Origin: Faecalicoccus sp.
Lineage (GTDB): Bacteria > Bacillota_I > Bacilli_A > Erysipelotrichales > Erysipelotrichaceae
Reading direction: 5' to 3'
Assembly (NCBI GenBank): GCA_017941505.1
Contig: JAGAWH010000034.1
Location: 1 to 14,096 of the forward strand
Length of the DNA stretch: 14,096 nucleotides
Below are positions 3,705 to 13,271 of this stretch, piece by piece (the stretch's first letter is position 1; each line of letters begins with the position of its first letter). The translations under genes were made by a program, and so were the position numbers. The notes beneath the pieces are model-generated. The model was given only the letters and a program-made list of their open reading frames with translations. It was not told the origin of the DNA and made no database searches.

Positions 3705-4622
3705 ATGATTACCGAAACTATATCATTAAATCCGGAAGGTACCGCAAAGCTATATACCTATATTTTGGATTCTGCGGTATCTTTTTCAAAACAGAAGAAA
3801 TGGCCGGCAGTTGTGATTCTGCCCGGCGGCAGTTATTTGACAACCAACATCAAAGAAGGAGAAGCTGCAGCTGTGCAGTTTCTGGCAGGGGGATTTAGCT
3901 GTTTTGTACTTCGCTATGCCACTTATATTCGTACTAAGGAAGAAGCAGGCGGAAGCATTGAACTGGATGAAAAAGCTCACTATCCTAATCAGGCGCTCCA
4001 ATTAATGGAAGCTTTACATTTGATTCATGAAAACGCGGATAGATGGAATATTGATACCGATCTTATTTTCACATTAGGTTTCTGCGCCGGGGCCCATATC
4101 TGCGGTACCGTAGCACAGCGCTACACAGAAGAGAAATTTGTGAAGAGATTGTCCTTTGTTCCGAAAAAGGATGAACTTCGCACGGCCGGAACGATTATGT
4201 GCTATCCGATGATTAACGGAAATTTAAGACCGTATCTTGCCAAGACAAAGAATGAACCGGGAAGCATCTATGGACAGATTAATTTGATTGAAGGCTGTCT
4301 GTTTGGATATGTCCATCCAACACAGCAGGATATCTTTGAAAGAAACTTAGTCCATTATGTGCATGAGAAAATGCCACCGGTATTTATTTGGCAGACCAAC
4401 GATGATAAGACAACCGATCCGGAAATCGCATCGGAGTTTGTGCGGGGCATGCAGCGCTTTGGTGTATCGTGTGAATATCATCTATTCTCGGATGGAGGAC
4501 ATGGTATTTCGCAAATGAGTGAATATTGGGCAGATGACAAGGAACTGGATGAAGATATTGCCATCTGGCTGCCGTTAGCCTTACATTGGATGCATAGAAT
4601 CATACAAAAAAAGAGGGTATAA
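3705..4622 (+). CDS. Alpha/beta hydrolase (acetyl-esterase/lipase-like) with a Cys nucleophile
   Basis: A 305-residue alpha/beta hydrolase with no signal peptide. An early oxyanion-hole loop reads VVILPGGSY. The nucleophile elbow, normally G-x-S-x-G, reads LGFCAGAH, placing Cys127 (codon TGC, 4083-4085) where esterases of the BD-FAE/Axe2-like group carry Ser. The remaining triad candidates are an acidic residue in TNDDKT (D233/D234) and the His of DGGHGIS (H266). Known for the fold: Cys nucleophiles occur in dienelactone hydrolase, so activity is possible, but the substrate range may differ from ordinary esterases. It is the last gene of the mutY operon, and its stop codon lies inside the terminator stem. 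The ATG is preceded by AGGGAG. Confidence 0.8.
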   Translation: MITETISLNPEGTAKLYTYILDSAVSFSKQKKWPAVVILPGGSYLTTNIKEGEAAAVQFLAGGFSCFVLRYATYIRTKEEAGGSIELDEKAHYPNQALQLMEALHLIHENADRWNIDTDLIFTLGFCAGAHICGTVAQRYTEEKFVKRLSFVPKKDELRTAGTIMCYPMINGNLRPYLAKTKNEPGSIYGQINLIEGCLFGYVHPTQQDIFERNLVHYVHEKMPPVFIWQTNDDKTTDPEIASEFVRGMQRFGVSCEYHLFSDGGHGISQMSEYWADDKELDEDIAIWLPLALHWMHRIIQKKRV

Positions 4623-4649
4623 CCATTGAGTTATATCCTCTTCGTTTGT
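4611..4649. terminator. Bidirectional terminator overlapping the hydrolase stop codon
   Basis: AAGAGGGTATAAC (4611-4623) pairs with GTTATATCCTCTT (4630-4642) over 13 positions, including one G-U pair, around a 6-base loop. A T-rich stretch (CGTTTGTTT) follows on the plus strand. On the minus strand a T-run follows, the complement of AAAAA at 4606-4610. It lies between the convergent hydrolase and permease genes, and the TAA stop (4620-4622) is in the 5' arm. Confidence 0.8.
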
Positions 4650-4653
4650 TTAG

Positions 4654-5358
4654 TTATTCCTTGATTTCACGCTGATTGGAAACGATGCAGGAAATTGCCA
4701 TAAAGATCAGCGTGCAGGCGATGATAACACCTTCCTGAATCATGGTATCCGTATTGAATAATTTTGGATCGTTAGATACAGCGCCTAAAATATACTGCCC
4801 TAAATCGATAGGAACTTTATATTGGTTACAAAGCAGCGTCGCAACAAGTGGGCCAAAGGTAACCCAGGAGAATGAAAGTATGATTGACCATACGCTCTTG
4901 ATAAACATATATCCAAGTGAGAATGAGAAAATCGCAATCAGGATATTCTCAACCAGCTGTAAACCTACGGTAATCGCAATCTGAGATACACTTAACTTAA
5001 TCGCAAAGCTGTTTAAGAAAATCATGGCAACGGAGACTACCGCTTCAATTAAGAAGTAGATTAATGAAGCATGGATTGCTGCAAACATTTTTCCAAAGAA
5101 TACAGCGGTGCGGGAATATCCGGCGGTTAAGTAATTCTTTGTGGTCTGTTCTAAATAGTCTCTGCGGGCAATACCTACAGCTTCAGAAATCGCGAAAATC
5201 ATTGTAAACATGGTAAGTCCGGTTAATAACTCCGTTGAGCTTTCCGGAGGAATAAAGAAACGGAACGCAATTGTGAGTGCCAATAAAGCAGCACATGTGA
5301 TCCAGAATGCCGGACGGTGTCTTAATTTATAAAGCTCAATTTTCAATATCTTCATCAT
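4654..5358 (-). CDS. ABC-2 type transporter permease
   Basis: A 234-residue protein with about six hydrophobic membrane segments (approximately 18-36, 45-63, 97-117, 127-150, 156-176 and 209-228). The short basic N-terminus (KILKIELYKLRHRP) is typical of permeases that partner BcrA-type ATPases. It should form the membrane channel of an exporter with the ATPase encoded just upstream. The two genes overlap by four bases (ATGA), and a GGAGG site lies 7 bases before the ATG, inside the ATPase gene. Related pairs are known in bacitracin and lantibiotic resistance and in lipid or peptide export; the cargo here is not identifiable. The gene ends 5 bases from the shared terminator region. Confidence 0.85.
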   Translation of the reverse strand: MMKILKIELYKLRHRPAFWITCAALLALTIAFRFFIPPESSTELLTGLTMFTMIFAISEAVGIARRDYLEQTTKNYLTAGYSRTAVFFGKMFAAIHASLIYFLIEAVVSVAMIFLNSFAIKLSVSQIAITVGLQLVENILIAIFSFSLGYMFIKSVWSIILSFSWVTFGPLVATLLCNQYKVPIDLGQYILGAVSNDPKLFNTDTMIQEGVIIACTLIFMAISCIVSNQREIKE

Positions 5359-6302
5359 AAGCCGGCCTCCGCAATCTTCAAGAATTCATCTTCAAGACTA
5401 ATCTGTTCTTCAACAATCTGCTTGGCAGTAAGTTCACGAACTAATTTTCCTTCGACCATCATACCGTAGTGTGTAGCTAACTTTTCTAATTCACTTAAGA
5501 TATGACTGGAAATTAGAATAGTCGTACCAAGACGGTTGAGATCCATAAGAATATTTCGAACGTTGGCGATCGCAGCCGGGTCAAGGCCATTGATCGGCTC
5601 ATCCAAAATTAAAAGCTGTGGACGGTTTAAGATGGCACAGGCAATTCCTAATGCCTGACGCATACCCAGAGACAAAGCTTTCACCTTTACGTTTGCCTTA
5701 TCGTCTAATCCAACAGAACGAAGCGCTCTGTCAATTTCTTCTTTTGGCTTATCCAGATTAATTAATTTAGCGCGGATCGTAATGTTTTGCATAACGGTAA
5801 GATCGTCATAGAACGTTGGTGATTCAATAATGCATCCAATTTGACGGCGTGCTTCTGAAATGTTCTGTTCACCTGATAACAGGGAAATCGAACCGCTGTT
5901 GGCATTTGTCAAACCCATTAAGATGCGCATTAAGGTTGTTTTACCGGCACCGTTTTTACCAATCAATCCATAAATAGCCCCATATGGAACATGGATGGAT
6001 ACATTATCGTTGGCAAAAAGCTTTCCATATTTTTTTGTGATTCCTTCGGTTTCGATGGCATTCCCCTCTTTTACTTCTCCATAGTTTATCTTAGAACGCT
6101 CTTCTAACATTTCAGAGATTGCCTGAACGCTGGATGTCTGATTTTTCTTTACATTCATCTGCAGATACGTTCTTGGAGACATCAGGATCATATCCTGTTT
6201 GCCATCTTTTGTGATAATGATCGGTTCATCGCTGGAATGACATACCTTTGATAAGGAGTCATAATTTCTCAGCAAATCCCGGTCGGTGTATACTTTTGGC
6301 AT
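5355..6302 (-). CDS. ABC transporter ATPase with an N-terminal Phd/YefM-like antitoxin domain
   Basis: A 315-residue protein in two parts. Residues 1 to about 50 resemble the DNA-binding fold of Phd/YefM antitoxins: a DLLRNYDSLSKV helix, then EPIIITKDGKQDMILMSPRT. Residues 55-80 (QAISEMLEERSKINYGEV) resemble the helical toxin-binding tail of such antitoxins. From about 83 a complete ABC ATPase follows: Walker A GKNGAGKT (115-122), signature LSLGMRQ (210-216, the BcrA-type variant), Walker B LLILDEP (230-236), D-loop region GLDP and H-loop SSH with His267. It should power the permease encoded downstream. The ATG has GAGGGGG 7 bases upstream, and no in-frame alternative start exists at the domain junction. 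No toxin gene adjoins it. Inference: the N-terminal domain may bind the operon's own promoter. Confidence 0.88.
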   Translation of the reverse strand: MPKVYTDRDLLRNYDSLSKVCHSSDEPIIITKDGKQDMILMSPRTYLQMNVKKNQTSSVQAISEMLEERSKINYGEVKEGNAIETEGITKKYGKLFANDNVSIHVPYGAIYGLIGKNGAGKTTLMRILMGLTNANSGSISLLSGEQNISEARRQIGCIIESPTFYDDLTVMQNITIRAKLINLDKPKEEIDRALRSVGLDDKANVKVKALSLGMRQALGIACAILNRPQLLILDEPINGLDPAAIANVRNILMDLNRLGTTILISSHILSELEKLATHYGMMVEGKLVRELTAKQIVEEQISLEDEFLKIAEAGL

Positions 6303-6313
6303 AATACTACCCC

Positions 6314-6324
6314 CTCACGATGAG
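6314..6324. promoter_or_regulatory. Short inverted repeat before the antitoxin-ABC fusion gene
   Basis: CTCA-CGA-TGAG, with 4-bp arms, lies directly upstream of and overlapping the ribosome-binding site of the minus-strand operon. Phd/YefM proteins bind short dyads in their own promoters, so this is a candidate operator, but arms this short can arise by chance. Confidence 0.2.
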
Positions 6325-6364
6325 AATAATATAAACAAAAGTAAAATTCAATAGAGAAAAAGGG

Positions 6365-6394
6365 TGGAATCCCCTATATAGTTTGTGCTATTAT
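6365..6394 (+). promoter_or_regulatory. Probable extended -10 promoter for secA-prfB
   Basis: TATTAT at 6389-6394 is preceded by TG and one base (TGCTATTAT), which fits an extended -10. TGGAAT at 6365-6370 is a weak -35 (3 of 6 bases) with an 18-base spacer. Transcription would start near 6401, giving a leader of about 27 bases that carries the GGAGG site at 6416-6420. Confidence 0.45.
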
Positions 6395-6427
6395 TTGAAA
6401 TGGCATATTGTCGAAGGAGGGATTTTA

Positions 6428-8821
6428 ATGTCCTTGTTTGGAAATTTGTTTTCGGAAGAAAAACGAGAACTCGCAGAACTGGAAAAAATCGCGGATCAAG
6501 TATTATCTTACGATGCCCAGATGCGAAAAATGAGCGATGATGAATTAAAAGCTCAAACTGAGAAATTCAGAGAGAGATTAAATAATGGGGAAACAGTAGA
6601 CAATCTTTTACCGGAAGCTTTCGCAACCGCAAGAGAAGCCGCATACCGTGTAATCAACGAAAAACCATATAAGGTTCAGGTTATGGGTTCTGTTGCCATG
6701 CATAAGGGCGATATCGCCGAGATGAAGACCGGTGAAGGTAAAACCTTGACCGCAACGATGGCAGTTTATTTGAATGCCTTATCCGGTCAGGGCGTTCACG
6801 TTATTACGGTCAATGAATATCTGGCCGGACGTGATGCTGCGTGGATGGGTGAAATCTACCGCTTCTTAGGATTGTCAGTTGGTGTTAATAAGCGTGAATT
6901 ATCTGCCAGACAGAAACGTGAAGCTTATGCATGTGATATTACTTATACAACCAACTCAGAGTTAGGTTTTGACTATCTTCGTGACAACATGGTTACCAAT
7001 GTAAAGGACCGTGTATTACGAGGACTCAACATTGCGATTGTCGATGAAGTTGACTCCGTATTAATCGATGAAAGTAGAACACCATTGATTATTTCCGGTG
7101 GTAAGAAACAGACCGCTAACTTATATATTCAGGCGGATAAATTTGTTAAGACATTAACAGCACCTACTTATACTACCGATAAGTTCAGCCATGAAAAGAC
7201 TTTATTAAGCGGTGACTACGATATCGATGAAAAGACCCGTCAGGTTATGTTAAGTGAAGATGGTGTACGTAAAGCCGAAGCATACTTCAATATCCCTAAC
7301 CTGTATGACTTAGACCATACACAGTTGGTACACCACATCAATCAGGCTTTAAAAGCGAACTATATCATGACCAACGAAATCGAATACGTTGTTTCTGAAG
7401 ATCAGGAAATCGTAATCGTTGACCAGTTTACCGGACGTTTGATGCCGGGTCGTGCTTATTCCGATGGTTTACATCAGGCTATTGAAGCCAAAGAAGGTGT
7501 TCCTATTAAGGAAGAAACTTCTACATTAGCTACAATCACATACCAGAACTTCTTCCGTTTATATGATCGATTAGCAGGTATGACCGGTACCGCAAAAACC
7601 GAGGAAGAAGAATTCTTATCAACCTACAACATGAAGGTTGTCGTAATTCCTACCAATAGACCGGTTATCCGTGAGGATCTTCCGGATGAAGTATATGCAC
7701 GTAAGGAAATTAAATATCGTGCATTAGTCAATGAAGTAAAACGCTTATATGAAAAGGGACAGCCGGTTCTGGTTGGTACCATTGCGGTAGAAACCAGTGA
7801 ACTGATCAGTAACTTATTGAAAAATGAAGGTATTCCGCATGAAGTATTGAATGCGAAAAACCATGCACGAGAAGCTGAGATTATTGCCAAGGCTGGTCGT
7901 CCTAAATCTGTTACCATTGCCACCAATATGGCAGGTCGTGGTACCGATATTAAGTTAACAGCAGAAAGCCGTGAATTAGGCGGTTTAGCCGTACTTGGTT
8001 CTGAACGTCATGAAGCTCGTCGTATCGATAACCAGCTGCGCGGTCGTTCCGGACGTCAGGGTGACCCTGGATTCTCCCGCTTCTATGTATCTTTGGAAGA
8101 CTCCTTAATGGTACGTTTCGGTGGCGATAAGATTCAGAAGCTCTTCGATAAGATGGGCGATGAAAAGATTGAATCCAAGGCAGTTACCAAATCAATTACT
8201 ATGGCACAGAAGCGTGTTGAAGGATATAACTTCGATATGCGTAAACAATTGTTGGACTACGATGATGTATTACGCCGTCAGCGTGAAATCATCTACGCAC
8301 AGAGAAACAGAATTCTTGAAAGCGATGAAGTCCATGAAATGGTTAAACTGATCTTTGAAAAGACATTGGAACAGACATTACAGGCAAACCTGATGGATAC
8401 TAAGAAACAGGCTGTTGATGCAGCCGGCATGGTTAAATCCTTAGAAATGATGGGATTAACCGATGAGAAGAGAGTCCATGTTTCCGATATCGACAACAAG
8501 TCTTACGATGAAATGAAATCGTATCTCATGGATCGTATGTGGACGGAATACGAAAAGGAAATTGAACCGGTAAAGGTACAGTTCCTGCCATTTGAAAAGA
8601 CAGTTGTATTACGTAACATCGACCGTAACTGGATTGCCCATATCGACCGTATGGATAAGTTAAGAAGTGGTATTTATCTGCGTTCTTATGCACAGAATAA
8701 CCCACTCCAGCAATACGTACAGGAAGGTTTCGATATGTTCGAAGAGATGAACCAGAGAATTGATAGAGAAATCACATTCTTCTTAATGAAAGTTCGTATC
8801 CGCAGGGAGACGAAGAAGTAA
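6428..8821 (+). CDS. secA: Protein translocase ATPase SecA
   Basis: A 797-residue SecA, the ATPase motor that pushes preproteins through SecYEG. Seen: VMGSVAMHKGDIAEM followed by Walker A KTGEGKT (about 100-106), Walker B DEVD (206-209) leading into the pre-protein-binding region, ARREIID-like helicase and scaffold segments, NMAGRGTDI (500-508) and QLRGRSGRQGDPG. The start at 6428 has GGAGG 7 bases upstream and gives the usual MSLFGNLF; an upstream TTG at 6383 was rejected because it has no ribosome-binding site. The protein stops at FFLMKVRIRRETKK and lacks the C-terminal zinc-binding Cys/His tail seen in SecA of Bacillus subtilis and Escherichia coli. Its stop codon shares one base with the prfB start (TAATG). 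Confidence 0.97.
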   Translation: MSLFGNLFSEEKRELAELEKIADQVLSYDAQMRKMSDDELKAQTEKFRERLNNGETVDNLLPEAFATAREAAYRVINEKPYKVQVMGSVAMHKGDIAEMKTGEGKTLTATMAVYLNALSGQGVHVITVNEYLAGRDAAWMGEIYRFLGLSVGVNKRELSARQKREAYACDITYTTNSELGFDYLRDNMVTNVKDRVLRGLNIAIVDEVDSVLIDESRTPLIISGGKKQTANLYIQADKFVKTLTAPTYTTDKFSHEKTLLSGDYDIDEKTRQVMLSEDGVRKAEAYFNIPNLYDLDHTQLVHHINQALKANYIMTNEIEYVVSEDQEIVIVDQFTGRLMPGRAYSDGLHQAIEAKEGVPIKEETSTLATITYQNFFRLYDRLAGMTGTAKTEEEEFLSTYNMKVVVIPTNRPVIREDLPDEVYARKEIKYRALVNEVKRLYEKGQPVLVGTIAVETSELISNLLKNEGIPHEVLNAKNHAREAEIIAKAGRPKSVTIATNMAGRGTDIKLTAESRELGGLAVLGSERHEARRIDNQLRGRSGRQGDPGFSRFYVSLEDSLMVRFGGDKIQKLFDKMGDEKIESKAVTKSITMAQKRVEGYNFDMRKQLLDYDDVLRRQREIIYAQRNRILESDEVHEMVKLIFEKTLEQTLQANLMDTKKQAVDAAGMVKSLEMMGLTDEKRVHVSDIDNKSYDEMKSYLMDRMWTEYEKEIEPVKVQFLPFEKTVVLRNIDRNWIAHIDRMDKLRSGIYLRSYAQNNPLQQYVQEGFDMFEEMNQRIDREITFFLMKVRIRRETKK

Positions 8822-9922
8822 TGGAACTGTATGAATTAAAACAAAACGTAGAAACTCACCTGGAGAAGTTGGACTCTCTGGGTGAGTCTCTTTGACTTAG
8901 AGGCAAAAAATAAGCAGATCGAAGATTACGATAACGAGACTCTAAAGCCGGATTTCTGGAGTGATCAGAAACATGCCCAGAATATCATTCGTTCCCGCAA
9001 CAGCTTAAAAAATATTGTAGATACCTATACAGCTTTACATGATCAGTTATCTTCTTTAAATGAGACAGCGGATGCTCTGAAGGAAGATTTTGATGAAGAG
9101 TTGATGGAGATGGCCGTAGAAGAATACGAAGAAGTGTCAAAGACATTTGAAAGCTTTGAGATTCAGATTCTTTTATCCCACGAATATGACAACAACAATG
9201 CCATTCTTGAACTGCATCCGGGAGCCGGCGGAACCGAATCCTGTGACTGGGCGAATATGTTGTATCGAATGTATACAAGATATGCCGAGAAAAAAGGCTG
9301 GAAGGTATCGGTGCTGGATTATCAGCCCGGTGATGAAGCCGGTATTAAAAGTGTTACCTTCTTAGTAGAAGGGGATAAAGCTTACGGATATCTAAAATCA
9401 GAAAAAGGTGTCCATAGATTGGTGCGTATTTCTCCATTTGATGCCGGGGCAAGAAGACATACTTCCTTTGCCTCACTCGATGTTATGCCGCAGTTTAATG
9501 ATGAAATCGAGATTGAAATCAAACCGGAAGATTTGATCATTGAAACAAAGCGTGCATCGGGAGCCGGCGGTCAGCATATCAATAAAACCGATTCGGCTGT
9601 TCGTATTGTACATAAGCCTACCGGTATTGTATCTACCTGTCAGAACGGACGTTCCCAGCACGATAACAGGGAAGAAGCTATGCGAATTTTAAAATCCCGC
9701 CTGTATCAATTAATGATTGAAGAACAGGAAAAGAAATTGGCAGAAATCAAAGGTGAACAGGCTGCCAATGAATGGGGATCACAGATTCGAAGCTATGTCA
9801 TGCATCCGTATTCCATGGTAAAGGATACCAGAACCGGACAGGAAACATCTCAAGTACAGAGTGTTATGGATGGCGATTTGGATGATTTCATCTTTGCCTA
9901 TTTAAAATCTCAGGTGCAGTAA
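8821..9922 (+). CDS. prfB: Peptide chain release factor 2 (RF2), made by +1 programmed frameshift
   Basis: Translation starts at ATG 8821 ([20 protein letters not shown]) and meets an in-frame TGA at 8893. Shifting +1 on CTT TGA C continues as [14 protein letters not shown] and on to TAA 9922, about 366 residues, the usual RF2 size. Seen: the stop-codon recognition tripeptide SPF in [18 protein letters not shown], and the GGQ motif in [17 protein letters not shown] that triggers peptide release. RF2 reads UGA and UAA, so low RF2 favours the shift and autoregulates synthesis. A GTG at 8882 in the second frame is not the start, because it would lose the N-terminal helix. The gene sits directly after secA, a common order in Bacillota, and ends in a terminator. 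Confidence 0.95.
8881..8896 (+). promoter_or_regulatory. prfB: Programmed +1 ribosomal frameshift site of prfB
   Basis: GGT GAG TCT CTT TGA C: the classical CTTTGAC slippery stop is at 8890-8896. A Shine-Dalgarno-like GGGTGAG lies upstream (8880-8886) and could pair with the 16S rRNA tail. Its GGTGA core sits about one codon farther from CTT than the AGGGGG element of Escherichia coli; alternatively GAG (8884-8886) pairs at the classical spacing. Confidence 0.93.
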
Positions 9923-10883: not shown

Positions 10884-11942
10884 ATGCGGTTAGAAGAAGA
10901 TTTGTTTCAAAGAAAAGTACCTGTTATGGATACTTTGATTCCTTATGGCTTTATTCAAAAAGAAGATGGATATCATCTGTATAAATCGCTTTTAGATAAT
11001 CAATTTCAAATGGATGTACATATTGATTCTAAAGGGAAAATAAAGGCAATGTTGATGGATACAGAAACAGGGGATGAGTATATGCAGGTGCATATGCCGG
11101 CAAGTCAAGGTACTTATGTATTGATGGTAAGAGAAGCCTATCTGGAGGTGCTGGAAGATGTTGCCGGGCATTGTTTCAAAGAGACACGATTTCTTTTTCC
11201 GCAGACCAATCGCATCGATCAGATGATTGAAGAAAAGTATGGGGAGCATCCGGATTATCCTTTTAAAAAGCTGGAAAGCGCAGCTGTATATCGTTATCCT
11301 GCCAACCGTAAATGGTATGGCTTGGTGATGGATATTGAGAAGGGTCTTTTAACAAAAGAGGACGATAAAACTATTATTGAGGCATTGAATGTCAAGGTAG
11401 ATGCAGATAAAAGGAATCATTATCTAAGTGTGGATGGAATTTATCCGGCTTACCATATGAATCGTGAGAATTGGCTCAGTATAGTTTTAGATGAAGCGGT
11501 ATCGGATGAAATTGTGATGGAGCTAATTGATCAAAGCAGGCACTTTGCGATTTCAGCAGGAAGAAAAGGGGATACCCATGCCTGGATCATTCCGGCCAAT
11601 CCAAAGTATTATGATATCGATAAGGCATTTGAGAAGGAAAAGGATATTATCTGGAAACAGAGCGGAAAGATTGTTCCCGGTGATTTAGTTTTTATGTATA
11701 TTACTTCTCCGGTATCGGCGGTAAGATATCAGGGTGTTGTCACAGAAACAGATATTCCTTATGAATTTTCCAGTAAAGAGGTTTCCATGAAAAAGATCAT
11801 GAAACTGGATAAGACTCATGTATATCCGGATGATTTCTGTCCGCTTTCAAAATTGAAGGAACTTGGAATCAAATCAGTTCGGGGACAGAGGACAGTCACA
11901 AAGGAATTTCTGGAATATTTTAAGAATAATGAATCGGCTTAG
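10884..11942 (+). CDS. YjbR/MmcQ-like protein with a C-terminal EVE/PUA-like domain
   Basis: A 352-residue protein in three parts. Residues 1 to about 105 form an unnamed module (TLIPYGFIQKEDGYHLYKS, then an acidic beta-rich stretch). Residues about 108-222 fit the YjbR/MmcQ double-wing domain (AAVYRYPANRKWYGLVMD, NVKVDADKRNHYLSVDGIYP, HMNRENWLSIVLD). Residues about 230-345 look like an EVE/PUA-superfamily domain (HAWIIPANPKYYDIDKAF, then W257 and PGDLVFMYITSPVSAVRYQG). YjbR proteins are thought to bind DNA, and EVE/YTH-type domains bind modified bases, so recognition of modified nucleic acid is plausible inference. AGGGTGA lies 4 bases before the ATG, beginning inside the stop of the ECF gene 9 bases upstream, so the genes are probably co-transcribed. 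No catalytic motif is evident. Confidence 0.7.
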   Translation: MRLEEDLFQRKVPVMDTLIPYGFIQKEDGYHLYKSLLDNQFQMDVHIDSKGKIKAMLMDTETGDEYMQVHMPASQGTYVLMVREAYLEVLEDVAGHCFKETRFLFPQTNRIDQMIEEKYGEHPDYPFKKLESAAVYRYPANRKWYGLVMDIEKGLLTKEDDKTIIEALNVKVDADKRNHYLSVDGIYPAYHMNRENWLSIVLDEAVSDEIVMELIDQSRHFAISAGRKGDTHAWIIPANPKYYDIDKAFEKEKDIIWKQSGKIVPGDLVFMYITSPVSAVRYQGVVTETDIPYEFSSKEVSMKKIMKLDKTHVYPDDFCPLSKLKELGIKSVRGQRTVTKEFLEYFKNNESA

Positions 11943-11953: not shown

Positions 11954-12015
11954 AATTATATAAATTCTCCTTTTTTTCTAATCTTTCGTATAAGAAATTA
12001 AGGAGGAAATTGGAT

Positions 12016-12549
12016 ATGACTATTTATGATTCCTTAGAGAACGGAAACATCGAAGATATTATTAATTGTAATGAAATTATGTTGCCAAAGTATGATCCAT
12101 ATAAAAAAGATCTCCCCAAGAGAACAGATTACATTGGTGCTTTATCATGGCTCAGGGCAGTTTCTGAATGTATCGGGACAGATGTAGTATTTGCTTTGGA
12201 TGAAGCATTGATGGTACAGAATCTTTTTGGTGGACGGAGTGATGAGTATATCATATGGGTTTATGGAGATGATGAACTGACCAAATTTAATGGAATAGTT
12301 GTGCTTGGTAATAGTATAAGCCCGCTTTGTGTTAAAGAAAGGAATGGATTGAAGTATACCGAATTTAACAGAACTTTGTCCGATGCATTCTCTAACGAAG
12401 ATATTTTAGATATGCAGGGGATCACGGAAGCATTGAGCAATTATTACTATTCCCACAATGAAAGTTTTGATGGAATTATCGTTGAACCGCGATTTCAAAA
12501 AAGATTTGAAGAACTGGCAAGAGATGCGATAGATTATTACAACAATTAG
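12016..12549 (+). CDS. Putative AbiEi-like antitoxin partner (uncertain family)
   Basis: A 177-residue protein with no membrane segment or signal peptide. The start at 12016 is chosen because AGGAGG (12001-12006) lies 9 bases upstream; a TTG at 12010 is too close. I cannot name the family firmly. The order of a DVVFALDEALMVQNLFGG segment, a beta-rich IIWVYG segment and a TEFNRTLSDAF segment loosely resembles the middle and C-terminal parts of AbiEi-type antitoxins (A-L-x(n)-G followed by R-T-L-x-D). No clear N-terminal winged helix is seen. The strongest argument is context: an AbiEii-like nucleotidyltransferase, now broken, begins 7 bases downstream. The reading frame itself is intact. It could instead be an unrelated partner of that enzyme. 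Confidence 0.5.
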   Translation: MTIYDSLENGNIEDIINCNEIMLPKYDPYKKDLPKRTDYIGALSWLRAVSECIGTDVVFALDEALMVQNLFGGRSDEYIIWVYGDDELTKFNGIVVLGNSISPLCVKERNGLKYTEFNRTLSDAFSNEDILDMQGITEALSNYYYSHNESFDGIIVEPRFQKRFEELARDAIDYYNN

Positions 12550-12555
12550 ATTTGA

Positions 12556-13271
12556 ATGAATTTTACTGATGAAGAAGAATTGATGTACAAAGTGATGAAA
12601 GCTTATATGAAAGTGACATTCCAGTCGAATTTAAGGGATCAATGGTTTTGAAAGCATGTTTAGAAGAAGCAGGCTATATTGAGAACACCCGACATACTAT
12701 TGATATTGATGCAAATTGGTACTTAAATAGTTTTACTGATCGCAGAACAAATGGTTGATTCTATACAGAATGCTTTGAACAAGAGTGGAATTAATCTGAC
12801 AGTGCATTTGAGTAGGATGTGTAATCAAAATCGTTCAGCGGGATTCAAACTCTATAACAAAGAAATAGGGAAAACTCAGTTTACTATGGATGTTGATGTA
12901 AATCGTCCTATGTTACAAACAAAAATATACGAAATTACAGGTATTCGTTTTCGAGGTGTAATTCCAGTATGTATAATTGCTGATAAAGTATTTGTAATAT
13001 CTACCGATAAAGTTTTTAGAAGAATTAAGGACGTAATAGATCTCTTCTATCTGGTACATGTTATTCCTTATGATAAAGATGCAGTAAATGAAATCTTAGC
13101 ATCCTCTGGAAGGACGTTGGGGGATTTCAATAGCTTTTGAACCGTTTTGTTGAATTAACGCACGCATATGAGAAGTTTCGTTTTACCAGTGATGTTAACA
13201 AACCGACATTTGAAGATGTATATTATACGGTCAAAGATTACATCAAAGATGAGTTGTTGCGTCTGCGATGA
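12556..13271 (+). pseudogene. AbiEii-like nucleotidyltransferase toxin, broken by three frameshifts
   Basis: Reading across three frames rebuilds one protein of about 238 residues. ATG 12556 gives MNFTDEEELMYKVMKA. A one-base loss near 12603-12608 moves to YESDIPVEFKGSMVLKACL and RHTIDIDANWYLNSFTD (from 12609). An insertion (or two-base loss) near 12736-12742 moves to AEQMVDSIQNALNKSG. The frame then runs to TGA 13138, and the next frame continues LNRFVELTHAYEKFRF and on to TGA 13271. The last lesion is explained by losing one T from a T-run (13135-13138). The nucleotidyltransferase features survive: KGSMVLK, Asp residues in TIDID and TMDVDV, and IADK and KDVIDLFYL. AbiEii proteins are the toxin half of type IV AbiE phage-defence pairs. 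The longest intact piece, 12751-13140, would lack the active-site half. Confidence 0.8.

What the first reader, a model, noticed from the sequence alone, without database searches (positions are those of the whole stretch)
5355..6302. Phd/YefM-type antitoxin domain fused to an ABC exporter ATPase
Residues 1-80 look like a whole antitoxin (DNA-binding half plus helical tail), joined in frame to a complete BcrA-like ATPase, with a permease downstream and no toxin gene in sight. I do not recall a described system of this kind. It could be a self-regulating exporter whose ATPase binds its own promoter, or an exporter that neutralises or senses a toxin encoded elsewhere. A purine-rich AGAGGGG lies at the domain junction (minus strand, about 6069-6063), but the ATG after it is out of frame, hinting that two overlapping genes may have merged.
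Basis: partly seen in the sequence, partly recalled or inferred. Interest (0 to 1): 0.8.

Follow-up and report, generated by a model that had tools for sequence, protein, structure and literature searches.

The report
Antitoxin-fold domain fused to exporter ATPase
In some uncultured bacteria the ATP-burning subunit of a membrane exporter carries, at its front end, a small domain with the shape of a bacterial antitoxin; the domain is preserved by selection but seems to have lost the usual signs of antitoxin work, so it looks like a borrowed part put to a new use.

Summary
The fusion is real. ORF 5355-6302(-), 315 aa, joins a Phd/YefM-fold domain (residues 1-50) through a linker and a helix (58-70) to a complete BcrA/LanF-like ABC ATPase (81-315); a permease gene overlaps its stop. 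It is no sequencing error: the fusion also occurs in G001 (99% identity) and, at 48-50%, in Lachnospiraceae MAGs. On trees of the ATPase part alone the fused proteins form one clade (98/94), so one origin is favoured. The domain is under purifying selection (22 synonymous, 0 non-synonymous changes, window versus G001).
The position of YefM's DNA-contact Arg10 is basic in 18 of 18 standalone antitoxins examined but 1 of 11 fused proteins. Upstream palindromes beyond shuffled sequence were found for 10 of 18 standalone antitoxin genes, 0 of 4 fused genes. No toxin gene was recognised beside it, and one fusion-bearing genome has no match to four toxin families. The 'merged genes' hint is ordinary coding sequence.
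Most likely an antitoxin fold reused as a dimerising or docking module of the exporter; the exact role is inferred. My literature searches listed no such system. New variant of a known kind.

The parts
5355..6302 (-). Fusion gene: Phd/YefM-fold domain + BcrA/LanF-like ABC ATPase, 315 aa
6153..6302 (-). Residues 1-50, Phd/YefM fold (beta-alpha-alpha-beta-beta-alpha start)
   Evidence: Pfam PF02604 E=8e-6 on the 80-aa piece; AF2 block pLDDT 90-95; nearest PDB folds are antitoxins
6132..6152 (-). Residues 51-57, linker; longer and alanine-rich in the Lachnospiraceae fusions
   Evidence: alignments A1, A2; full-length model pLDDT under 50 at 52-54
6093..6131 (-). Residues 58-70, helix kept at a fixed distance from the ATPase domain in both fused clades
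   Evidence: gap-free to AIET; helix 58-70 in the full-length model
6063..6069 (-). AGAGGGG at the domain junction; part of codons for K-E-G, followed by an out-of-frame ATG that opens 32 codons
5358..6062 (-). Residues 81-315, ABC ATPase domain
5934..5960 (-). Walker A, GKNGAGKTT (115-123)
   Evidence: sequence; mostly invariant columns of A1 and A6
5823..5825 (-). Glu160 at the Q-loop position (IIESPTFY), as recalled for LanF-type ATPases
   Evidence: invariant in A1 (17 rows) and A6 (30 rows); the LanF 'E-loop' is recalled, not read
5655..5675 (-). ABC signature LSLGMRQ (210-216)
   Evidence: sequence
5598..5615 (-). Walker B LLILDE (230-235)
   Evidence: sequence
5502..5504 (-). H-loop His267
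   Evidence: invariant in A1 and A6
4654..5358 (-). Permease, 234 aa, ABC2_membrane_4; ATG overlaps the ATPase stop (ATGA)
   Evidence: 26% identical to the permease beside the L033 fusion
6310..6316 (-). Shine-Dalgarno-like GAGGGGG before the fusion ATG
   Evidence: sequence
6303..6427 (.). Intergenic region divergent to secA; no inverted repeat or TGTACA found
4611..4642 (.). Terminator-like hairpin between the operon and the convergent + strand hydrolase gene
   Evidence: listed on the + strand; 3 such sites found, 1.5 expected by chance; T-run on the - strand by eye

Best explanation
A two-gene exporter operon (ATPase + one permease). The ATPase carries an N-terminal Phd/YefM-fold domain captured, most likely once, from a toxin-antitoxin antitoxin and kept by selection for a use other than toxin neutralisation or operator binding. 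Shown: the fusion, the predicted fold, one clade on the ATPase trees, purifying selection, loss of the Arg10-equivalent and lack of promoter palindromes, no recognised toxin gene alongside. Inferred: because YefM-type N-domains form dimers and an exporter of this type needs two ATPase subunits, the paired domains most likely hold or position the two ATPases (assembly or regulation), with helix 58-70 as the arm at fixed distance from the ATPase; docking to another protein is the nearest alternative.
For: Fusion in 11 full-length proteins (the window's own plus 10 database clusters; P0002 is a near-copy of the window protein) and 3 genomes. Fold. Fused ATPase domains are one clade: SH-aLRT 97 with 112 rows; ultrafast bootstrap 98 / SH-aLRT 94 with 42 rows; 8 fused rows in each. 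Selection: window versus G001, codons 1-80: 22 synonymous, 0 non-synonymous; L033 versus L032: omega 0.062 for residues 1-50, 0.188 for the linker, 0.061 for the ATPase. No in-frame start codon lies between ATG 65, inside helix 58-70, and TTG 113, inside the ATPase, so an unfused ATPase from this gene is unlikely. Position 11 (YefM Arg10): K/R in 18 of 18 standalone antitoxins, 1 of 11 fused. Palindromes. ATPase motifs intact.
Against: Dimerisation was not tested; no complex could be predicted. In the window clade Arg12 sits next to the lost Arg10 position and could take its place; an ungapped alignment with ELKNTA-type antitoxins puts Arg12 on their Lys. Lys32 (YefM Arg31) is kept in all 11 fused proteins, though this column is basic in only 12 of 18 standalone ones. 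Only 4 upstream regions were compared, 2 of them near-copies, and 8 of 18 standalone genes also lacked a palindrome at this threshold. The fusion is rare (2 of 42 genomes of the Lachnospiraceae genus), so related bacteria do without it.
Confidence: 0.45

Rival explanations
1. Self-regulating exporter: the Phd/YefM domain still binds the operon's promoter, so that ATPase level or transport state sets expression, standing in for the separate regulator gene that such exporters often have beside them (recalled).
For: Fold is that of a DNA-binding domain. Lys32 (YefM Arg31) kept in all 11 fused proteins; Arg12 in the window clade. No regulator family among the genes next to the window operon that were scanned, whereas unfused relative L002 has a TetR-like gene upstream (by eye). 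A 10-nt, 90% inverted repeat lies upstream of the L033 fusion.
Against: Arg10-equivalent lost in 10 of 11. Best upstream palindrome scores 4, 5, 4, 5 for the four fused genes, matched by 297, 227, 292 and 158 of 300 shuffles; 18 standalone antitoxin genes score 5-11, 10 of them reached by at most 30 of 300 shuffles (Mann-Whitney p=0.0015, 0.004 without near-copies). No TGTACA upstream.
Confidence: 0.2
2. The domain is still a working antitoxin: it holds or senses a RelE/YoeB/Doc/VapC-type toxin encoded elsewhere, coupling toxin release to exporter state.
For: Relatives L035-L037 are antitoxins beside RelE/ParE-like genes (ParE matches for L035 and L037 genomes). G001 has a YefM-YoeB pair, a Phd-PIN pair, a ParE locus and 6 Fic matches.
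Against: No match to ParE (E up to 1), YoeB, Fic or PIN (E up to 0.1) in G147, which has the fusion; G146 has only Fic matches over the cut-off. In G001 the YoeB, ParE and PIN matches lie beside small antitoxin-like genes of their own (by eye). The tail is short in the window and an alanine-rich, faster-changing linker in the other clade.
Confidence: 0.12
3. Passenger: a decayed antitoxin gene that fused by chance and has no function.
For: Rare and sporadic; antitoxin hallmarks weakened.
Against: 22 synonymous against 0 non-synonymous changes in codons 1-80, and omega 0.062 for the domain in a second pair; fold residues kept over about 50% divergence.
Confidence: 0.06
4. The domain docks a different partner (another protein, RNA or a small ligand) rather than dimerising for assembly.
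For: Selection on the domain with weakening of the known antitoxin features; the same domain type also sits on NAD synthetase, where no exporter is involved.
Against: No partner identified; apart from the permease no neighbour gene is shared between the window and L032 or L033, by eye.
Confidence: 0.17

Closest known systems
Phd/YefM antitoxins (PF02604; YefM of YefM-YoeB, PDB 2a6q; Phd of Phd-Doc)
   Different: Fused to an ATPase, no recognised partner toxin gene, Arg10-equivalent lost in 10 of 11, no upstream palindrome found, tail not recognisable
LanF / BcrA-type exporter ATPases (TIGR03740, lantibiotic protection)
   Same: Best NCBIfam match, 212.7 bits over residues 84-310; ABC motifs; Glu at the Q-loop position (recalled LanF feature); ABC-2 type permease alongside
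   Different: Below the TIGR03740 cut-off of 309.75 bits; one permease instead of LanE + LanG; no lantibiotic family among the window proteins scanned; N-terminal extra domain, which LanF lacks (recalled)
ABC ATPases with an added regulatory domain (OpuCA with CBS, MetN with its C-terminal domain, MalK; recalled)
   Same: A small extra domain on the ATPase subunit, thought to regulate
   Different: Those domains are C-terminal and of other folds; none is an antitoxin fold (recalled)
Multidomain antitoxins such as PanA (PMC10440598, passages read)
   Same: Antitoxin modules joined to other domains
   Different: PanA antitoxins neutralise a partner toxin; the passages shown name no ABC ATPase fusion ('abc' occurs 0 times in the text)
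Phd/YefM domain on NAD synthetase in uncultured Bacilli (L034/G148, L123/G514; found here)
   Same: Same domain type N-terminal to an ATP-using housekeeping enzyme
   Different: Different enzyme; LRDT keeps the Arg in both (by eye); antitoxin part about 50 residues

Membership tests
Phd/YefM antitoxin (PF02604) | N-terminal beta-alpha-alpha-beta-beta-alpha fold | tested here: met
   AF2 of residues 1-80; all 50 listed Foldseek rows and the 23 best VIA-align entries are antitoxin or toxin-antitoxin entries; Foldseek's best E-value is 3.4e-3, none below 0.001
Phd/YefM antitoxin (PF02604) | Score over the curated Pfam cut-off | tested here: inconclusive
   Window piece 26.0 bits against 29.8, E=8e-6; L032 29.4, L033 24.7, P0003 19.8; 7 of the 8 Lachnospiraceae-type clusters and 0 of 3 window-type clusters carry a precomputed PF02604 label; the G146 fusion scores 32.2, over the cut-off,
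Phd/YefM antitoxin (PF02604) | Basic DNA-contact residues at YefM Arg10 and Arg31 (essential for DNA binding by YefM2-YoeB, PMC4803016, passage) | tested here: not met
   Position 11 basic in 1 of 11 fused, 18 of 18 standalone; position 32 Lys in all 11 fused, basic in 12 of 18 standalone. Arg12 in the window clade may compensate
Phd/YefM antitoxin (PF02604) | Palindromic operator upstream, autoregulation | tested here: not met
   0 of 4 fused genes with a palindrome better than shuffles, 10 of 18 standalone controls with one at 30 of 300 or fewer; binding itself untested
Phd/YefM antitoxin (PF02604) | Partner toxin gene adjacent | tested here: not met
   No type II toxin family among the window proteins scanned; none of the genome matches listed for ParE, YoeB, Fic or PIN lies on the fusion contig (G001 C180, G146 C122, G147 C72)
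Phd/YefM antitoxin (PF02604) | C-terminal toxin-neutralising tail | tested here: inconclusive
   Residues 51-80 partly helical, not alignable with standalone tails with confidence
LanF / BcrA-type ABC exporter | Walker A, signature, Walker B, H-loop intact | tested here: met
   Conserved in A1 and A6
LanF / BcrA-type ABC exporter | Glu in place of Gln at the Q-loop (recalled feature of LanF) | tested here: met
   E160 invariant in A1 and A6; one search listed no paper with both NukF and 'E-loop'
LanFEG lantibiotic immunity system | Two permeases (LanE, LanG; PMC5786555, passages) and TIGR03740 cut-off | tested here: not met
   One permease gene; 212.7 bits against 309.75
BcrAB / LanFEG | Export of bacitracin or a lantibiotic | not testable with these tools
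   No substrate information in the sequence

The most novel reading that the evidence does not exclude
A transport-coupled reader: two Phd/YefM domains on the ATPase dimer are brought together or pulled apart by the ATP cycle, so the exporter's working state is read out by whatever the domain pair binds (DNA through Arg12/Lys32 in this clade, or a protein). The same fold on NAD synthetase would then be a parallel case of antitoxin folds recruited as state-reporting or dimerising modules of ATP-using housekeeping enzymes.
Probability: 0.15. Interest if true: 0.8.

Novelty: new variant of a known kind. Interest (0 to 1): 0.5.

Why it matters
Antitoxins are usually discussed together with a toxin. 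This is a case where the antitoxin fold has left the toxin-antitoxin setting, been joined to an exporter ATPase, most likely once, and been kept by selection after losing several signs of its old work. It gives a small, testable protein (residues 1-80) for asking what an antitoxin fold is good for without toxin and operator, and it warns against annotating Phd/YefM matches as antitoxins by default.

Tried and rejected
Sequence error or single-genome artefact: rejected. Independent fusions in the two lineages: not favoured, as the fused ATPase domains are one clade. Ancestral split operon (Phd gene just upstream of unfused relatives): none seen by eye in L002-L004 (only these three were looked at). 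Merged overlapping genes at the junction: AGAGGGG is coding sequence for K-E-G; the ATG opens 32 codons. Internal start giving an unfused ATPase: in the window gene the nearest in-frame start codons are ATG 65 (17 codons before AIET) and TTG 113; the two Lachnospiraceae genes have an in-frame ATG about 10 codons before AIET, without a Shine-Dalgarno by eye. HepT-like N-domain on the related ATPase P0021: only E=0.011 and nothing relevant in the PDB by sequence; left open. Phmmer of residues 1-80 against the PDB found nothing. Adding antitoxins to the full-length alignment misplaced them on the ATPase, so that alignment was not used for a model. PADLOC matches of the fusion fall almost entirely on the ATPase part and were not taken as defence evidence. 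Literature: searches; passages read in PMC2701414, PMC5786555, PMC4803016 and PMC10440598; all other listed papers seen in the listing only; nothing seen described this fusion.

Rows left out before counts: trees used 8 of the 11 fused proteins (near-copies P0002, P0006, P0010 out) and 112 of 171 extracted rows, then 42. The 18 standalone antitoxins were chosen by me before those counts: L035 and L036, and 16 of the 39 loci given to the script, mostly those where it recovered an antitoxin frame on the plus strand (a few recovered ones, such as L046, L055, L056, L092, L094 and L101, were not used). Gene starts for one search were set by hand, to within about 6 bases; its shuffles were of single bases.

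Full report
Observation. The frame at 5355-6302 on the minus strand is open for 315 codons, starts at an ATG behind GAGGGGG and ends by a 4-nt overlap with a permease gene at 4654-5358. Residues 1-80 match PF02604 with E=8e-6 at residues 16-68, below the curated cut-off (26.0 against 29.8 bits); residues 99-238 match ABC_tran with E=2.9e-31; the permease matches ABC2_membrane_4 with E=7e-10. The best NCBIfam match of the ATPase part is TIGR03740, a lantibiotic-protection ATPase, below its cut-off. A terminator-like hairpin follows the permease (3 such sites found in the region scanned, 1.5 expected by chance).

Distribution. In the 5.8-billion-protein collection the fusion appears as two groups: the window type (P0002 98%, P0003 88%, fragment P0004) and P0005-P0011 at 48-50% identity, plus P0122 (the searches need shared 5-residue words, and one search scored a capped 7999 candidates and listed 120). 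Among 145 relatives of G001 a full-length match was listed only in G001; among 200 genomes of the family of G147 only in G147; in the genus of G147 in 2 of 42, G147 and G146. Public titles: RUG11795 labelled Erysipelothrix rhusiopathiae, RUG14896 and RUG12455 labelled Lachnospiraceae (that RUG stands for rumen genomes is recalled). PF02604 matches in 244 genomes of the order: of the 150 rows listed, counted by hand, 0 lie in a frame longer than 191 aa (listed rows are the best-scoring ones, and the window-type fusion scores too low to be among them). Neighbours differ: secA and a hydrolase gene flank the window operon, while in L032 and L033 the fusion follows a ribonuclease E/G-like gene (by eye); the permease is kept and homologous, 26%, E=8e-22 (window against L033).

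Origin and selection. On trees of the ATPase columns only, the 8 fused rows form one clade: SH-aLRT 97 among 112 rows (quick tree, with long-branch warnings for some other rows) and 98/94 among 42 rows. Codons 1-80, window against G001: 22 synonymous and 0 non-synonymous changes; codons 81-315: 18 and 5. L033 against L032: omega 0.062 (1-50), 0.188 (51-96), 0.061 (97-331), with dS near 1 (counts by my own script). The domain is therefore kept by selection. Helix 58-70 stands at the same distance from AIET in both clades, while the stretch before it varies in length.

Is it still an antitoxin or a repressor? In YefM Arg10 and Arg31 are essential for DNA binding of the YefM2-YoeB complex, which recognises palindromes with TGTACA (PMC4803016, passages). 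On alignment A5 the Arg10 column is K/R in 18 of 18 standalone antitoxins; in the 11 fused proteins it is Leu (3), Gln (7) or Lys (1). The Arg31 column is Lys in all 11 fused proteins and basic in 12 of 18 standalone ones (register of the standalone profile against 2a6q). Against this reading: Arg12 stands next to the lost position in the window clade, and an ungapped alignment with ELKNTA-type antitoxins would put it on their Lys; the other clade has Glu there in all 8. Upstream 120 bases: best palindrome scores are 4, 5, 4 and 5 for window, L031, L032 and L033, equalled by 297, 227, 292 and 158 of 300 shuffles; 18 standalone antitoxin genes score 5-11, and 10 of 18 are reached by at most 30 of 300 shuffles, 8 of 18 are not that strong (Mann-Whitney p=0.0015, and 0.004 after dropping L031 and L036). 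A separate repeat search found none in the window and L032 regions, one 7-nt pair in the L031 region that lies in the secA coding part, and two in L033, one of them 10 nt at 90%. TGTACA occurs 3 times in the window, none upstream of the fusion.

Toxins. ParE (E up to 1): G001 1, G146 0 over the cut-off (one at E=0.075), G147 0. YoeB (E up to 0.1): G001 1 over the cut-off and one at E=0.093, G146 0, G147 0. Fic: G001 6, G146 2, G147 0. PIN: G001 1, G146 0 over the cut-off (one at E=0.093), G147 0. In G001 the YoeB, PIN and ParE matches lie beside small antitoxin-like genes of their own (by eye). In G146 and G147 the fusion is the only PF02604 match with E below 0.2. G001 is given as 85% complete with 6% contamination; completeness of G146 and G147 is not told, and all are MAGs by their titles.

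Reading. The Phd/YefM fold was joined, most likely once, to this exporter ATPase and has been kept while several signs of antitoxin and repressor work faded. Reuse as a dimerising or docking module of the ATPase is the most economical account; it is inferred from the dimeric N-domain of YefM (PMC4803016, passages) and the need for two ATPase subunits (established knowledge of ABC transporters). The same domain type also stands in front of NAD synthetase in two genomes of one uncultured Bacilli family, 2 of 23 searched (in L123 the antitoxin part was recognised through the 40% match to L034, not by Pfam), and at the C-terminal end of an HATPase_c_4 protein in G001 (21.1 bits, below the cut-off). 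This suggests, without proving, that the fold is a reusable part.

Novelty. Searches of the held library listed no paper that I could recognise as describing a Phd/YefM-ABC ATPase fusion (two returned none at all; the others were seen as listings, with passages of two papers read); the library lacks most subscription papers. I file it as a new variant of a known kind: a LanF/BcrA-like exporter with an exapted antitoxin fold.

Noticed in passing
L034:1783-3876 (G148) and L123 (G514): A Phd/YefM-type domain sits N-terminal to a glutamine-dependent NAD synthetase in two uncultured Bacilli genomes, 2 of 23 searched; six other listed genomes of the family match only the synthetase part.
   Followed up: partly
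L051:34-774 (G001 contig C379): An HATPase_c_4 protein, cut by the contig end, with a Phd/YefM-like stretch at its C-terminal end (21.1 bits, below the cut-off).
   Followed up: no
window 12010-13140: Two neighbouring genes with weak AbiEi-like (E=0.0016) and AbiEii-like (E=0.038) matches; stops lie in the frame read before the second one, so this may be a broken type IV toxin-antitoxin pair. Described only.
   Followed up: no
window 8821-9922: prfB: a short leading frame from the ATG at 8821 reaches CTTTGAC, where the main frame continues in another register, as in the known prfB programmed frameshift (recalled).
   Followed up: no
window 10884-11942: One protein with a YjbR domain (E=1.9e-14) and a weak EVE match (E=0.0035).
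   Followed up: no
P0017, P0021: ATPases of the same subfamily carry a different N-terminal extension of about 105 residues; P0021 has a weak HepT-like match (E=0.011), without PDB support by sequence.
   Followed up: partly
window 5355-6302 against L031: Synonymous change is uneven: 22 in codons 1-80 against 18 in codons 81-315, perhaps a recombination breakpoint inside the gene.
   Followed up: no
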